DNA from: a bacterium
GTDB taxonomy: Bacteria > Chloroflexota > Dormibacteria > UBA8260 > Bog-877
Reading direction: 5' to 3'
NCBI GenBank assembly: GCA_021791345.1
Contig: JAJYWT010000036.1
Coordinates: forward strand, 1-12,554
Length of the DNA: 12,554 bases
Shown here: positions 968 to 5,268 of the stretch, piece by piece
Layout: every line of letters starts with the position of its first letter
Numbering within the stretch: position 1 is the first letter of the stretch
Position numbers and translations under genes: made by a program
The notes under the pieces: model-generated
The model's database searches: none
The model's input: only the letters and a program-made list of their open reading frames with translations
What the model was told of the DNA's origin: nothing

Positions 968-1291
968 TCAGTCCCGCGACTGGCGCGGCTCCAGGAGGGC
1001 TGTCAGCGGGCCCTCATAGTCCGCCAGCTGGCGGTGGAGCTCCAGAAGCTCGTCCGCCGAGATGGGTTCGCGCTCCTTGCTGTCAACCTCCGCGGCCCCA
1101 CCTCCCTGGACCTCCAGCGCCACAAGGAAGGCCATGGAGCAGTGCCGGCAGGTCACCTGGACGGTGTAGTGGGGGCCCTGGTGGGCAAGCTGGCGCAGCT
1201 CGCAGTCGGCCAGCGAGCGCCGGCAGACGGGGCAGCGGAAGTCCCCCGCCCGCTGCCGCAGAAAGCCCATGATGTCCATCGCCATCTCCAC
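968..1291 (-). CDS. Small zinc-ribbon protein upstream of the cysteine desulfurase
   Basis: A 107-residue protein from GTG 1291 with a treble of metal-binding cysteines: CPVC at residues 20-23, Cys30, and CRHC at 48-51. This is a CxxC...CxxC zinc-ribbon pattern, followed by an acidic helical C terminus. No transmembrane segment or signal peptide is visible. I do not recognise a named family. The frame is open up to ATG 1309, but I prefer GTG 1291 because a TATACT -10 at 1302-1297 lies 5 bases upstream, which suggests a leaderless message. ATG 1279, with GGAG 6 bases before it, is the alternative. The decayed copy at 3443-3505 is most similar from GTG 1291 onward, which agrees with this start region. 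It ends 7 bases before the desulfurase, so a role in sulfur or Fe-S handling is possible but is inferred from position only. Confidence 0.8.
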   Translation of the reverse strand: MEMAMDIMGFLRQRAGDFRCPVCRRSLADCELRQLAHQGPHYTVQVTCRHCSMAFLVALEVQGGGAAEVDSKEREPISADELLELHRQLADYEGPLTALLEPRQSRD

Positions 1292-1296
1292 TTGGG

Positions 1297-1302
1297 AGTA
1301 TA
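1297..1302 (-). promoter_or_regulatory. -10 hexamer TATACT of the zinc-ribbon/desulfurase operon
   Basis: On the minus strand TATACT lies 5 bases before GTG 1291, the usual geometry of a leaderless transcript. I see no convincing -35 box. In the duplicated fragment at 3491-3505 the corresponding bases read CAATCT, a weaker box. Confidence 0.45.
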
Positions 1303-1653
1303 GATCCACCCGAAGAGCGGGCTCCCGCCGGGGCTATCGAGCCAGAATCCAGGGCGAGGAATCCGCCCCGGGTGGCTCGGGCGAAAAGGACGACCGCGGA
1401 CGACCCGCAGGGAGCGGTGGGTGTCCACGCAATCGACGGCCCATGCCCAGTGGATCCTTGAGCGAGCTGGCCTGCTAGCGGATGCGGCGGCGGCGTGGCG
1501 GGCAGGCATTCAGATTGTGGGGGCCCGCGAGCCCGCCGGTGGGCCTCAGACAACCTGGGTGAGTCCCCCGCTGCGGACCCTTGCCAAGAGCCGGGGAGAT
1601 GGTGTCCAGCACCGGAGTCCACGGCTAGTCACACTTAGTGGTACCGTGCGTGC
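1303..1653. other. Intergenic stretch between divergent zinc-ribbon gene and first toxin-antitoxin pair
   Basis: About 350 bases without a gene I can support. The open frames here are low-complexity Arg/Ala/Gly-rich translations with no motif and no ribosome site. It holds the minus-strand promoter of the zinc-ribbon gene at its left end and the toxin-antitoxin promoter at its right end. A short inverted repeat, GCGG/CCGC, lies at 1317-1328. No terminator, RNA gene or longer repeat was seen. Confidence 0.5.
1631..1646 (+). promoter_or_regulatory. Putative promoter and RHH operator of the first toxin-antitoxin operon
   Basis: CACT-T-AGTG at 1631-1639 is a perfect short palindrome that abuts GGTACC (1639-1644). 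TACCGT (1641-1646) fits the TAnnnT -10 pattern and ends 7 bases before GTG 1654, so a leaderless transcript is likely. Ribbon-helix-helix antitoxins normally bind palindromes over their own promoter, which makes this the natural candidate operator. The assignment is by position and symmetry only. Confidence 0.35.
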
Positions 1654-1911
1654 GTGAGGACCACGGACACGGTGACTATCTCACTTCCGGCCGAGCTCGC
1701 CGACGAGGTGGATCGCATCGCCCTGCAGGAGGGACGCACCCGCAGCGAGCTCTTCCGAGAGGCCTTCCGGCAGTACGCGGATCGGCGACGCCGCTGGAGC
1801 CAGTTGTTCGCATACGGCGAGGCCCGGGCCGCCGCCGGCCACCTCACCGAGGAGCGGCTCACCAGCGCCGTGAGGGCTCGCCGCCGGTCGCGCCGGCCAA
1901 CAGCGCACTGA
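1654..1911 (+). CDS. Ribbon-helix-helix (CopG-type) antitoxin
   Basis: An 85-residue protein. Residues 5-44 form a CopG/RHH_1 DNA-binding domain: a beta strand (TVTISLP), helix A (AELADEVDRIALQEG), the turn RTRSE, then helix B (LFREAFRQYADRR). The basic, Gly/Ala-containing C-terminal half would wrap and block the toxin. The start is GTG 1654, with no Shine-Dalgarno but a -10-like TACCGT 7 bases upstream. Its TGA is followed immediately by the toxin's GTG with no gap. By family analogy it neutralises the PIN toxin and represses its own operon as a dimer bound to the upstream palindrome. It shares only about 14 of 39 residues, by my count, with the antitoxin at 3571. Confidence 0.85.
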   Translation: MRTTDTVTISLPAELADEVDRIALQEGRTRSELFREAFRQYADRRRRWSQLFAYGEARAAAGHLTEERLTSAVRARRRSRRPTAH

Positions 1912-2331
1912 GTGCGGGTGGTCCTCGACACCAATGTCCTGATCTCCGCGCTTCACTTCGGCGGACGTCCCCGACGCGTCCTCGAGGCGGCGCTGCGCGG
2001 TGAGCACCAACTCGTCATCGGTACGGCCATCCTCAGCGAGCTCGAGAGCGTCCTCGTTGGGATGTGCGGATGGACGCCTGACCGTGCGACCGCCGCTTGC
2101 CGCGAACTGGAGGCCCTGGGTGAGCTGGTCTTGCCCGCTGAGGTGCCGCACCTGTGCCGTGACCCCGATGACAAGGAGATCCTGGCCATCGCTGCCGCGG
2201 GTCAGGTGGCTGCTTTGGTCACCGGGGACGCCGACCTTCTGGCCCTCGCCAGCTACGGCCGGGTCCGGATCTTGACGGTCGCCGACTTCGAGGAGACCGA
2301 CATCCTGACCTCCGCTCCCGACACCCCCTAG
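1912..2331 (+). CDS. PIN-domain toxin (putative toxin-antitoxin PIN family, COG1569-like)
   Basis: A 139-residue single PIN domain, predicted to be a Mg2+-dependent ribonuclease. The acidic catalytic set is visible: Asp6 in VVLDTNVLIS, Glu43 in LSELESVL, the cluster at Asp84/86/87 in RDPDDKEIL, and Asp106/108 in VTGDADLL. The spacing and the DPDDKEILA motif match the TIGR00305/COG1569-type putative toxins better than classical VapC. GTG 1912 directly follows the antitoxin stop, so translation is coupled. Known PIN toxins cleave tRNA, rRNA or mRNA and stop growth when freed from antitoxin; the target here is unknown. A further gene starts 4 bases downstream. Confidence 0.88.
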   Translation: MRVVLDTNVLISALHFGGRPRRVLEAALRGEHQLVIGTAILSELESVLVGMCGWTPDRATAACRELEALGELVLPAEVPHLCRDPDDKEILAIAAAGQVAALVTGDADLLALASYGRVRILTVADFEETDILTSAPDTP

Positions 2332-2335
2332 CACC

Positions 2336-2872
2336 TTGGATCAGCTACTCCTCCGCGTCTTCCAGGGCCACGTGGCTGCCCAGTGCCGGTTCGCGCTGGC
2401 CGGCGTCCCGGTTATCGACGAGAGCGCCCGTCAAGGGGATCACGATCGGCTCTGGATCGGATGCCAGATGCTCGTGCTGGGGGCCGGCAACGTGTCCAAG
2501 GCGCTCTGGGGCGACGGCCGGCACCGGCGCGCCTTGGCGCCTCGGCGCCGGGCCCTTAGGGAGTCACTGAACGTCACTGACGCCTCACCGCTCCATCAGG
2601 TCGCCATCCGCAATCATCTCGAGCACTTCGACGAGCGAATCGACTGTTGGTGGGGGCAGTCTTCCCGCCACAACTTCCTGGATGACATGATCGGACCACC
2701 GTCGGCGGTCGCCGGGTTCACCGAGATCGAGATGTTCCGGATCTATGACCCCACGCCCCCGTCTGGCCCACGAATAGTCTTCTGGGGCCAATCCTTCGAT
2801 CTCCAGCCCCTGGCCGAGGAGTGCTCTCGGATCTTCACCATCGCCAGCCGGGAAGCCGGCAGGTGGCCCTGA
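2336..2872 (+). CDS. Uncharacterised protein with an HEPN-like R-N-x3-H motif
   Basis: A 178-residue protein with balanced composition and no Arg/Pro-rich shadow character, so I take it as a real gene. The N-terminal two thirds looks helical (residues 5-100). It contains R92-N93-x3-H97 inside VAIRNHLEHFDERID, the R(N/D/H)x3-5H pattern of HEPN ribonucleases. The C-terminal part (130-170) carries FRIYDP, VFWGQSFDLQPLAEE, apparently a small beta/helix segment. No membrane segment is seen. TTG 2336 is the only plausible start before residue 13, because a stop lies 28 bases upstream in frame. It has no clear ribosome site but sits 4 bases after the PIN toxin stop, so it is likely translated by coupling. 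It could be a third member of the toxin-antitoxin operon or an independent defence-type gene. The HEPN assignment is inference from one motif. Confidence 0.6.
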   Translation: MDQLLLRVFQGHVAAQCRFALAGVPVIDESARQGDHDRLWIGCQMLVLGAGNVSKALWGDGRHRRALAPRRRALRESLNVTDASPLHQVAIRNHLEHFDERIDCWWGQSSRHNFLDDMIGPPSAVAGFTEIEMFRIYDPTPPSGPRIVFWGQSFDLQPLAEECSRIFTIASREAGRWP

Positions 2873-3144
2873 CCGCAGACCTCCGGACATCCTGCTCTCC
2901 GATGGGGTGCAGCGGTTCCCTCGGGATTGGCTTGTCGGGGCGGGCATCGAAGTCAAGCAGGCCGCCCAGCGGCGAGTCAGAGAAATTGACTGCACCACAA
3001 TCATGTTCGACTCACCAAACTCGAATGTCCAGATCTCTGGACCGAAGCCCGGGGGACGGCCCGAAGATCTAGGCCACGGGGTTCTTGGGTCTGTGGAGCT
3101 CCCGGAGCCCGGCGCAATCCACGGTCCCCAAGCTGTTTGGACCT
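2873..3144. other. Non-coding or decayed stretch of lower GC
   Basis: I find no supported gene. One plus-strand frame (about 2904-3100) reads VQRFPRDWLVGAGIEV and onward without a recognised motif or ribosome site, and then runs antisense through the galE fragment, so it is probably chance or debris. Bases 2970-3040 are noticeably less GC-rich than the rest of the window, which would fit foreign DNA. Confidence 0.4.
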
Positions 3145-3435
3145 CCGGGCGGCGCAGCCCTCCATCCCCGACGGAGACCGGTCACGGTCGTCAGCGACAC
3201 TGGCCGACCAGCTGGCTGGGTCCCACTGGCGGCGGGGCCGACCACGACCTCGATCAGCGCCCAGGTCACCTGGCGGGCTGCGGCCACCGCCTCCAGCACG
3301 GGGAACCCCCGGCCGTTGCCGGGGTTGTAGGCGAGATGGTGCCCCGCGGCGCCTGAAGTTGACTCCAGGGCCAGGAGGTGGGCGGCCGCCAGGTCGCCCA
3401 TGTGGATGTAGTCCCTAATGCAGGTCCCATCCTCC
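3145..3435 (-). pseudogene. Fragment of galE (C-terminal part only)
   Basis: The minus-strand translation matches the C-terminal third of the intact GalE encoded at 4280-5251. [10 protein letters not shown] is identical, followed by AHLLAL, NGRGF and VAAARQVT. By my count about 50 of 66 residues are identical across the best block. The block 3244-3435 aligns without gaps to 4431-4622. Toward 3235 there is a one-base loss in a G run, and similarity fades beyond about 3150 (a GW...P remnant of GWSPRRP remains). The Rossmann nucleotide-binding half and the YxxxK catalytic motif are absent, so it cannot be an epimerase. The 5' side of the fragment stops abruptly at about 3435, where the zinc-ribbon fragment begins. 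Confidence 0.85.
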
Positions 3436-3442
3436 CCTGCGG

Positions 3443-3505
3443 GCCCGCCCAATGCCGAAGGAAGCCCATGATGGCCATCGCCATCTCCACTCAGGAGATT
3501 GGAGC
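3443..3505 (-). pseudogene. Fragment of the zinc-ribbon gene (5' end and start region)
   Basis: The minus strand from GTG 3490 reads [16 protein letters not shown], against VEMAMDIMGFLRQRAG in the intact gene: 13 of 16 residues identical. Bases 3461-3490 match 1262-1291 at 28 of 30. Similarity extends a few bases into the 5' flank (to about 3505) and stops at about 3443, before the cysteine codons, so no zinc ribbon is encoded. It abuts the galE fragment in a different reading frame. A short chimeric peptide could in principle be made from this start, but nothing suggests selection for it. Confidence 0.82.
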
Positions 3506-3550
3506 CGGTCCCGGGAAAGGTACCGGCGAGGAGCACCGCACCGGGAGGCA

Positions 3551-3564
3551 ATACCGGGTATACT
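3551..3564 (+). promoter_or_regulatory. Palindromic operator ATACC-G-GGTAT overlapping the -10 of the second toxin-antitoxin operon
   Basis: Bases 3551-3561 form a perfect 11-bp palindrome. TATACT at 3559-3564 is a good -10 that ends 6 bases before GTG 3571, so the transcript is probably leaderless. An RHH antitoxin bound to the palindrome would cover the -10 directly, which is the usual autorepression geometry. A related GGTACC lies upstream at 3519-3524. Confidence 0.5.
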
Positions 3565-3570
3565 GCGCCT

Positions 3571-3807
3571 GTGGCCAAGGTGATGGTGTCGCTTCCAGAC
3601 GACCTGCTCAGAGCGGTCGATGCTGAGGCACGCCGGCTTCGGACCACCCGCAGCGGAGTCCTGCGCCAACTGGCGGAAGAGTCGATCGGGCGGCGCAGCG
3701 TCCGGCGAGCGGAGCGAATGGCGGAGATAGAGACCGCTGGCGGGTCCGGTGCCCGCCACGGGGGCCGGGTCGCCGAGCTGGTGAAGGCGACCCGGCCGGA
3801 TCTTTGA
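3571..3807 (+). CDS. vapB: VapB-type ribbon-helix-helix antitoxin
   Basis: A 78-residue protein from GTG 3571. Residues 2-40 are a ribbon-helix-helix domain: strand VMVSLP, helix [14 protein letters not shown], turn RTTRSG, then helix [12 protein letters not shown] charged tail follows ([10 protein letters not shown]...[12 protein letters not shown]), which is the expected toxin-binding part. GTG 3571 is chosen because it puts the strand at the N terminus and lies 6 bases behind TATACT. Longer in-frame starts upstream would read through the promoter. Its stop overlaps the toxin start (TTGA), so the two are co-translated. Predicted to neutralise the adjacent PIN toxin and repress the operon through the palindrome at 3551-3561. 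Confidence 0.85.
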
Positions 3808-4226
3808 GCCTCTGGCTGCTCGACGCCAGCGTCCTGCTGGCGAGCGAGGACTGGGAGGACGGCAATCACACTGAGGCGGTTCGCCTGCTCCGCGACCCGG
3901 AGCCCCTGGCGACCCTGGACCTGGCCCTCTACGAGGTGACCAACGTGGCCGTGCGCGCCTGGCGTGATCGAGCGGCGGCCCACCGCCTGGGACAGCGAGT
4001 GGAAGCCCTCGCCGAGGATGGCGGGCTGCTGCGAGCGGACGCATCGCTGCTGGCCAGCGCCGCCACCATCGCCGACGACTTCGGCATCTCGGTGTACGAC
4101 GCCGCCTACGTGGCCGCAGCGCGTCACCATGGCGCACAGCTGGTCAGCTGCGATGTCCGTGACCTCGTGTCACGGGGCCTGGCGCTCCTTCCCGGCGGCG
4201 CCGGCAGCAGCCGCTCGCCTCTCTGA
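3804..4226 (+). CDS. vapC: VapC-type PIN-domain toxin
   Basis: A 140-residue PIN ribonuclease. Catalytic acidic residues are in the expected places: Asp7 in [10 protein letters not shown], Glu44 in ALYEVTN, Asp99 in [12 protein letters not shown], and Asp117 with Asp120 in [10 protein letters not shown]. The SVYDAAYVA...L(V/I)xxD arrangement is classical VapC and differs from the PIN protein at 1912. The start is TTG 3804, whose TG is shared with the antitoxin TGA (4-base overlap). By family precedent it is an endonuclease acting on tRNA or rRNA. The last 12 residues ([10 protein letters not shown] end) look like an unstructured tail. It converges on galE, whose stop lies 53 bases downstream. 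Confidence 0.9.
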
Positions 4227-4258
4227 CGAAGACCAACCCGAGCCGAACCCTTGGGGAG

Positions 4259-4272
4259 CGGGGGATGCCCCG
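4259..4272. terminator. Short GC hairpin between convergent vapC and galE
   Basis: CGGGG-GATG-CCCCG forms a 5-bp stem with a 4-base loop in the 53-base gap between two convergent stops. No T tract follows on either strand, so it is at best a weak bidirectional terminator or pause site. Confidence 0.3.
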
Positions 4273-4279
4273 GCGCAGC

Positions 4280-5251
4280 TCAGCGGGAAGCGACCTGGCG
4301 CCGGAACTCGAATGCGTCCTGGATCATATCCTCCAGGGAGGGACGTCGCGGCGACCATCCCAGCTCCCGCTGGGCCAGTTCGCTGGAGGCCACCAGCACC
4401 GCCGGGTCCCCGGGGCGGCGGGGGCCGAACACGACCTCGATCGGGGCCCCGGTCACCTGGCGGGCGGCGGCCACCACCTCCAGCACCGAGAACCCCCGGC
4501 CGTTGCCCAGGTTGTAGACCAGGTGCCGCCCCCCGGCCGCCGCGGTGGCGTCCAGGGCCAGCAGGTGGGCGGTCGCCAGGTCGTCCACGTGGATGTAGTC
4601 CCGGATGCAGGTCCCGTCCGCCGTGGGGTAGTCGGTGCCGTACACGGTGAGTGCCCCCCGCTCCCCCAGCGCCACCTCCAGGAGGAGGGGGATGAGGTGG
4701 GTCTCGGGCTGGTGACGCTCCCCCCTCTGCAGGGCGGCCCCGGCCACGTTGAAGTAGCGCAGGGAGACCGCCGCCAGCTGGTGGGCTGTGCACTCATCCC
4801 GGATCATGAGGTCGGCCGCCAGCTTGGTGTTGCCGTAGGGGCTGGTGGGGGAGGTGGGGTGCAGCTCGTCGATGGGGAGCCTCTCGGGCTCGCCGTACAC
4901 CGACGCGGTGGAGGAGAAGACCAGCCGGCCGATCCCTAGCTCGCGCATGGCGGCGAGCAGGGTCATGGTGTCGCCCAGGTTGTTCTGCCAGTAGACCTCG
5001 GGGATCCTGGTCGACTCACCGACCTGGGAGCGGGCGCCGAAGTGCAGCACCGCCTCCACCCCCTCCAGCGCCCGGTGCAGCACCTTGGGGTGGTGGATCG
5101 AGGCCTCGAAGAACTCGGCCCCCTCGGGGACGGCGTCCCGGTGGCCGGTGCAGAGGTCGTCCAGGACCGCCACCTGGTGGCCCTCCTGGAGCAGCCGGGC
5201 CGCGACCACGCTGCCGATGTACCCCGCCCCGCCCACCACCAGGACCCGCAC
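4280..5251 (-). CDS. galE: UDP-glucose 4-epimerase
   Basis: Extended short-chain dehydrogenase that interconverts UDP-glucose and UDP-galactose (or the N-acetyl forms) with bound NAD. The 323-residue length is typical. Visible are the GGAGYIGS nucleotide-binding loop near residues 7-14, VLDDL (acidic residue binding NAD ribose), LHFGA, VGES, FSSTASVYG at about 112-120, the catalytic Tyr139-x3-Lys143 in SPYGNTK, LRYFNVAGA, and [16 protein letters not shown] prefer GTG 5251 because AGGAGG sits 5 bases before it; GTG 5257 overlaps that ribosome site. It follows the dehydrogenase gene by a short gap and appears to be the last gene of a three-gene operon. A decayed copy of its 3' part lies at 3145-3435. 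UDP-sugar specificity cannot be read from sequence. Confidence 0.95.
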   Translation of the reverse strand: MRVLVVGGAGYIGSVVAARLLQEGHQVAVLDDLCTGHRDAVPEGAEFFEASIHHPKVLHRALEGVEAVLHFGARSQVGESTRIPEVYWQNNLGDTMTLLAAMRELGIGRLVFSSTASVYGEPERLPIDELHPTSPTSPYGNTKLAADLMIRDECTAHQLAAVSLRYFNVAGAALQRGERHQPETHLIPLLLEVALGERGALTVYGTDYPTADGTCIRDYIHVDDLATAHLLALDATAAAGGRHLVYNLGNGRGFSVLEVVAAARQVTGAPIEVVFGPRRPGDPAVLVASSELAQRELGWSPRRPSLEDMIQDAFEFRRQVASR

Positions 5252-5268
5252 CGCCACCTCCTCCTCGG

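What the first reader, a model, noticed from the sequence alone, without database searches (positions are those of the whole stretch)
1244..4622. One tandem duplication explains the galE and zinc-ribbon fragments and the whole island
Seen: left to right, all minus strand, the order is intact zinc-ribbon gene, galE 3' fragment (to about 3435), zinc-ribbon 5' fragment (from about 3443), intact galE. A head-to-tail duplication of a segment from inside the zinc-ribbon gene to inside galE gives exactly this order, keeps both outer genes intact and creates one chimeric junction. No further deletions are needed to explain the gene remnants. It also implies that zinc-ribbon and galE were once neighbours, with the space between them duplicated and then filled or replaced by toxin-antitoxin cargo.
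Basis: partly seen in the sequence, partly recalled or inferred. Interest (0 to 1): 0.72.

Follow-up and report, generated by a model that had tools for sequence, protein, structure and literature searches.

The report
Duplicated gene shards beside toxin-antitoxin cargo
An old head-to-tail duplication in an uncultured bacterium left broken pieces of two neighbouring genes between two unrelated toxin-antitoxin pairs, but the duplication alone does not account for all the extra genes found there.

Summary
The fragments, their order and their junction are real. A galE piece (W3207-3435) matches galE W4373-4622, and a zinc-ribbon 5' piece (W3444-3506) matches W1245-1307; they abut within 8 bp in inverted order. 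Two relatives carry the same arrangement (G006 on one contig, G001 on two), so it is no assembly artefact. Outgroups show the predicted single junction: galE directly beside zinc-ribbon in G003 and G009, about 0.5 kb apart in G002. The galE piece changed evenly over codon positions since it arose, at about the time of the split from G002. This fits a local head-to-tail duplication.

"One duplication explains the whole island" is not supported. The galE piece is internal, lacking the last ~30 codons. One VapBC-like pair (TA2) already lay between the genes: antitoxin remnants persist in G002 and in the window's left copy. The left copy's toxin and galE tail are gone; an unrelated VapBC-like pair (TA1) and an uncharacterised gene stand there. 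A 164-bp MITE-like element came last. A rival, unequal recombination between two alleles of the site, is not excluded.

The parts
968..1309 (-). intact zinc-ribbon-like gene (left copy), 113 aa
   Evidence: ORF; 57 of 61 related genomes have a match; Pfam zinc-ribbon hits only below the curated cut-off
1354..1518 (+). decayed remnant of a TA2-type RHH antitoxin gene, left copy
   Evidence: 3 of 6 consecutive 55-bp blocks of W1299-1628, the three inner ones, find their best place in W3498-4280 at offsets 0, +4, +4; local alignment 266, 0 of 300 shuffles; 110-bp block 58 at offset 0, next 44
1624..2331 (+). TA1: RHH antitoxin (1654-1911) and PIN toxin (1912-2331)
   Evidence: Pfam RHH_1 2.7e-12, PIN_3 1.8e-17; TIGR00305 1.3e-12; left edge of similarity W1624 in G008, G010, G018
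2336..2872 (+). 178-aa protein of unknown function, possibly HEPN-like
   Evidence: 63 homologues listed, the window's own included; invariant R92, E96, H97 in 34 aligned sequences
2876..3039 (.). MITE-like repeat, 164 bp, flanked by GACCG at 2871-2875 and 3040-3044
   Evidence: absent at this site in G001 and G006; 4 further copies, 3 in G001 and 1 in G018
3207..3435 (-). internal galE piece, about codons 212-295
3436..3443 (.). chimeric junction
   Evidence: same sequence in W, G001 and G006
3444..3506 (-). zinc-ribbon 5' piece
   Evidence: 87% over 54 bp, 83% over 63 bp
3580..4226 (+). TA2: RHH antitoxin (3580-3807) and PIN toxin (3804-4226), right copy
   Evidence: Pfam RHH_1 6e-6 (on the longer ORF 3499-3807), PIN 1.1e-11
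4280..5257 (-). intact galE
   Evidence: TIGR01179 3.3e-113

Best explanation
The ancestor had galE - TA2 - zinc-ribbon (inferred from TA2 antitoxin remnants in G002 and in the window's left copy). A segment from galE codon ~212 through TA2 to zinc-ribbon codon ~22 was copied head-to-tail in an ancestor of W, G001 and G006, at about the time of the split from G002 (inferred from divergence). Both outer genes stayed whole; the inner pieces became shards that decayed without selection (shown for galE by even change over codon positions). In the left copy the TA2 toxin and the galE tail were lost, the TA2 antitoxin decayed, and TA1 with the 178-aa gene came to stand there (result shown, order of events inferred). 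A MITE-like element then entered W. The shards probably have no function; the two pairs probably act as ordinary VapBC-type modules, a PIN nuclease held in check by an RHH antitoxin (inferred from families).
For: Order and junction. Same island in G006 and G001. Outgroup series: 9 genomes without galE between the neighbours, G003 and G009 with galE adjacent, G002 with about 0.5 kb. galE piece changed at 7 of 69, 4 of 60 and 4 of 45 first, second and third positions at sites where 4 galE agree and 3 pieces agree; functional galE of W and G002 differ at 0, 5 and 16 of 66, 66 and 67 (first 205 columns). Third-position distance of pieces from W galE, 15 of 66 and 19 of 67, is like W vs G002 galE, 16 of 67. 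Collinear TA2 antitoxin remnant in the left copy.
Against: The left and right antitoxin regions differ at 80 of 180 sites, far more than galE piece and galE (41 of 227), which one simple duplication does not predict; but G002's unduplicated remnant differs from the right copy as much (80 of 182). A tree that joins left and right copies is second best (AU 0.34 against 0.73). The galE tree does not fix the place of the piece (AU 0.77 for the placing beside the W/G001/G006 clade, 0.43, 0.23, 0.17 and 0.17 for others). The left antitoxin remnant is weaker in G001 (2 of 300 shuffles reach it). No trace of the left copy's PIN toxin was found (231 of 300 shuffles reach the score).
Confidence: 0.6

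Rival explanations
1. Unequal recombination between two alleles of one site. One allele held TA2, the other held TA1 and the 178-aa gene next to an older antitoxin remnant. Joining zinc-ribbon of the first to galE of the second out of register put both cargoes in tandem in one step.
For: Left and right antitoxin regions are much more diverged than the galE piece from galE. TA1 stands where the left copy's TA2 toxin should be, in the same orientation. A TA1 relative lies 6.5 kb upstream of zinc-ribbon in G008, in the same relative orientation. Explains two unlike pairs without a later insertion.
Against: G002's unduplicated remnant is just as diverged from the right copy, so the spacer may simply change fast. 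The galE piece shows no third-position excess on its stem, so the alleles must have had nearly identical galE. No genome seen has the second allele alone (20 stretches; the 178-aa gene in 5 of 101 genomes, only W's island relatives G001 and G006 at this site).
Confidence: 0.25
2. The shards came from another species with its own galE and zinc-ribbon neighbours.
For: The galE piece is about equally far from four intact galE (79-82%); trees placing it further out are not rejected (AU 0.17-0.23).
Against: No third-position excess on its stem; farther from G008, G003 and G009 galE.
Confidence: 0.1
3. Assembly chimera.
For: The named relatives are metagenome assemblies, and no whole genome is held for the window.
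Against: G006 has the same arrangement on one contig at 95.6-95.8% DNA identity, and G001 on two contigs.
Confidence: 0.01

Closest known systems
VapBC-type toxin-antitoxin modules (PIN toxin with RHH antitoxin)
   Same: RHH gene directly followed by, or overlapping, a PIN gene in both TA1 and TA2.
   Different: Nothing unusual seen; toxicity and pairing not tested.
TA islands, clusters of unlike TA pairs (PMC2701414, passages read)
   Same: Two unlike TA pairs within 2.6 kb.
   Different: Shards of the flanking genes lie between the pairs. The paper says tandem duplication cannot explain islands of unlike pairs; here a duplication of the flanks took part, though not as the sole cause.
Tandem (head-to-tail) duplication with a chimeric junction
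   Same: Outer genes whole, one inverted-order junction.
   Different: The left copy has lost and replaced most of its inside.

Membership tests
Tandem duplication | junction of the far end of one copy to the near end of the next, outer copies intact | tested here: met
Tandem duplication | single-copy arrangement in relatives | tested here: met
   G002, G003, G009
Tandem duplication | the inside of the segment present in both copies at like divergence | tested here: inconclusive
   antitoxin remnant in the left copy, but 80 of 180 sites differ and the toxin was not found
VapBC module (TA1) | RHH or similar antitoxin next to a PIN toxin | tested here: met
VapBC module (TA2) | RHH or similar antitoxin next to a PIN toxin | tested here: met
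VapBC module | toxic RNase neutralised by its partner | not testable with these tools
   needs expression in laboratory E. coli
HEPN (178-aa protein) | Rx4-6H motif with a polar residue after R | tested here: met
   R92 and H97 invariant and N93 nearly so in 34 sequences; motif as in PMC3710099 passages
HEPN (178-aa protein) | HEPN fold | tested here: inconclusive
MITE (W2876-3039) | short repeat with terminal inverted repeats and target duplications, several copies | tested here: met
   sequences: 5-bp duplications GACCG (W), CAGTG, AACTG and AGATG (three G001 copies); ends alike at 12 of 15 positions, read by eye; 4 further copies in 2 of 61 genomes (the G018 copy's ends were not examined)

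The most novel reading that the evidence does not exclude
The window records how a toxin-antitoxin island of unlike pairs can grow without a transposase: two alleles of one intergenic site, each holding a different TA pair, recombine out of register, so that both pairs end in tandem with shards of the flanking genes between them. Such shards would be a readable and datable mark of the process in other TA islands.
Probability: 0.22. Interest if true: 0.55.

Novelty: new member of a known kind. Interest (0 to 1): 0.32.

Why it matters
Clusters of unlike TA pairs have been reported as frequent, with preferred insertion regions or transfer of cassettes offered as causes (PMC2701414, passage). This locus has an outgroup series (no galE between the neighbours; galE alone; galE with a TA remnant; full island) that lets the steps be ordered, and it shows that duplication of the flanking genes can take part in building such an island. 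As a single locus it is a well-documented example rather than a new principle.

Tried and rejected
Assembly artefact: rejected, G006 has the arrangement on one contig. Foreign origin of the shards: not favoured. Excess divergence of the left antitoxin as proof of the two-allele model: rejected as proof, because G002's unduplicated remnant is equally diverged from the right copy. Direct match of G002's spacer to the window's left copy: weak (11 of 300 shuffles reach it). Remnant of the left copy's PIN toxin in W2873-3210: not found. A chimeric protein across the junction: the zinc-like and galE-like frames differ, none proposed. HEPN fold for the 178-aa protein: the motif fits, the fold comparison is undecided. 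PADLOC gave no family for the five island proteins. Papers: searches listed no report of this locus or of the two named relatives, as far as titles and abstract starts show; only a held open-access library was searched. PMC2701414 and PMC3710099 were read as passages only.

Full report
What was checked. The window (12,554 bp) has intact zinc-ribbon-like (968-1309, -) and galE (4280-5257, -) genes with about 3 kb between them. Self-comparison finds galE-like W3215-3435 (83.3% to W4401-4622) and zinc-like W3444-3497 (87% to W1245-1298). They lie in inverted order and their matched blocks end 8 bp apart. In G001 it aligns without a gap to W4373-4622 (250 bp, 83.6%) and then homology stops, so about the last 30 of 325 codons are missing; W and G006 share a further 20-bp deletion.

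Relatives. A scan of genome contigs with galE (best 80 loci kept) gave two close relatives, L001 (MAG YP2.bin62, G001) and L002 (MAG DBS1-1.bin61, G002), at 92% and 89% protein identity. The zinc-ribbon protein was then sought in 61 related genomes, 57 with a match, and 20 stretches were fetched and compared. G006 (one contig) and G001 (two contigs of the same locus) have the island as in W. G002 has galE and zinc-ribbon about 0.5 kb apart. G003 and G009 have them adjacent (gaps of about 70 and 130 bp). G007 and G008 have zinc-ribbon and nifS but no galE on the stretch; G008 keeps a galE on contig C8. Nine more (G010 to G018) have the dehydrogenase-like gene next to zinc-ribbon with no galE between. 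The remaining three stretches were other loci (G002 C47, G001 C57, G001 C17). So the predicted single-junction state exists, and an assembly artefact is excluded. The organism was not identified; 'bacterium' is all that the records' titles say.

Where the galE piece comes from. Identity of the W piece to intact galE is 81.9% (W), 80.6% (G006), 80.2% (G002), 79.3% (G001), 73.1% (G008), 67.8% (G003) and 66.1% (G009). At sites where four galE agree and three pieces agree, the pieces differ at 7 of 69, 4 of 60 and 4 of 45 first, second and third positions; functional galE of W and G002 differ at 0, 5 and 16 of 66, 66 and 67 in the first 205 columns. The filter keeps fewer third positions, so this is a guide rather than a rate. 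The piece appears to have drifted as non-coding DNA from the start. Its third-position distance from W galE (15 of 66 for the W piece, 19 of 67 for the G001 piece) is like that between W and G002 galE (16 of 67), which puts its birth near that split. The tree favours, but does not prove, a place beside the W/G001/G006 galE clade (AU 0.77; alternatives 0.43, 0.23, 0.17, 0.17). Only 227-247 columns were available.

The space between the genes was not empty. Upstream of the intact zinc-ribbon gene, W1354-1518 aligns collinearly with the TA2 antitoxin of the right copy. Of six 55-bp blocks of W1299-1628, the three inner ones find their best place along W3498-4280 at offsets 0, +4 and +4; the first block is second best there and the last two find nothing collinear. 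A 110-bp block scores 58 at offset 0 against 44 for the next best of 121 offsets. The local alignment score of 266 is reached by 0 of 300 shuffles; for the G001 left copy, 2 of 300. G002's spacer carries such a remnant too (418, 0 of 300 shuffles; two of nine blocks best at offset -1), though its direct match to the window's left copy is weak (11 of 300). So a TA2-type pair was there before the duplication.

What the duplication does not explain. No trace of the TA2 toxin or the galE tail was found in the left copy. In their place lie TA1 (similarity from W1624 in G008, G010 and G018) and a 178-aa gene (W2336-2872), whose G010 relative is on another contig than that genome's TA1 relative. Codon-position differences between W and G001 are 4, 6, 12 (RHH1), 4, 4, 11 (PIN1), 7, 1, 12 (178-aa gene), 1, 3, 6 (RHH2) and 14, 12, 27 (PIN2), which suggests purifying selection on them; in G006 the 178-aa gene has a one-base gap and is read in two frames. 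About W3045-3206 and W1519-1623 remain of unknown origin. A 164-bp MITE-like element (W2876-3039) with a 5-bp target duplication is in W but not at that site in G001 or G006.

Two histories remain. In the first, a duplication of galE(part)-TA2-zinc(part) was followed by loss and replacement in the left copy. In the second, two alleles with different TA pairs recombined out of register. The left and right antitoxin regions differ at 80 of 180 sites, far more than the galE piece from galE (41 of 227), which speaks for the second; but G002's unduplicated remnant differs from the right copy just as much (80 of 182), so the spacer may simply change fast. A tree joining left and right is second best and not rejected (AU 0.34 against 0.73). 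I hold the first at 0.6 and the second at 0.25.

Known context. PMC2701414 (passages read) reports TA islands mostly of different classes and says that tandem duplication cannot explain them. This locus shows duplication of flanking genes taking part in such an island, though not as its sole cause. It is a clear, partly ordered example of a known kind of process.

Noticed in passing
2876-3039: A 164-bp MITE-like repeat sits directly behind the stop codon of the 178-aa gene in the window; it is absent there in G001 and G006, with three other copies in G001 and one in G018.
   Followed up: partly
2336-2872: The 178-aa protein belongs to a family of unknown function (63 listed) with an invariant R and H in an RNxxEH motif like that of HEPN RNases; the fold comparison was undecided.
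   Followed up: partly
L130:2198-9388 (G008 C70): Upstream of zinc-ribbon in G008 lie a PbeA-like helicase (PADLOC 1.7e-59), a BrxC/D-like ATPase (Pfam 1e-11) and a TA1 relative: the site next to zinc-ribbon also holds defence-like genes there.
   Followed up: partly
L126:1-119 and L125:1-119 (G001): In G001 the island is broken near W3806-3813, between TA2 antitoxin and toxin. One contig end can be read as the start of a helix-turn-helix protein like that of IS607 elements (by eye; family recalled), so an insertion element probably sits there.
   Followed up: partly
L140:5068-5729 (G002 C47): G002 carries a relative of TA2 (71% DNA identity) at another locus, closer to the window's TA2 antitoxin than G002's own remnant beside zinc-ribbon is (51 of 167 vs 80 of 182 differences).
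   Followed up: partly
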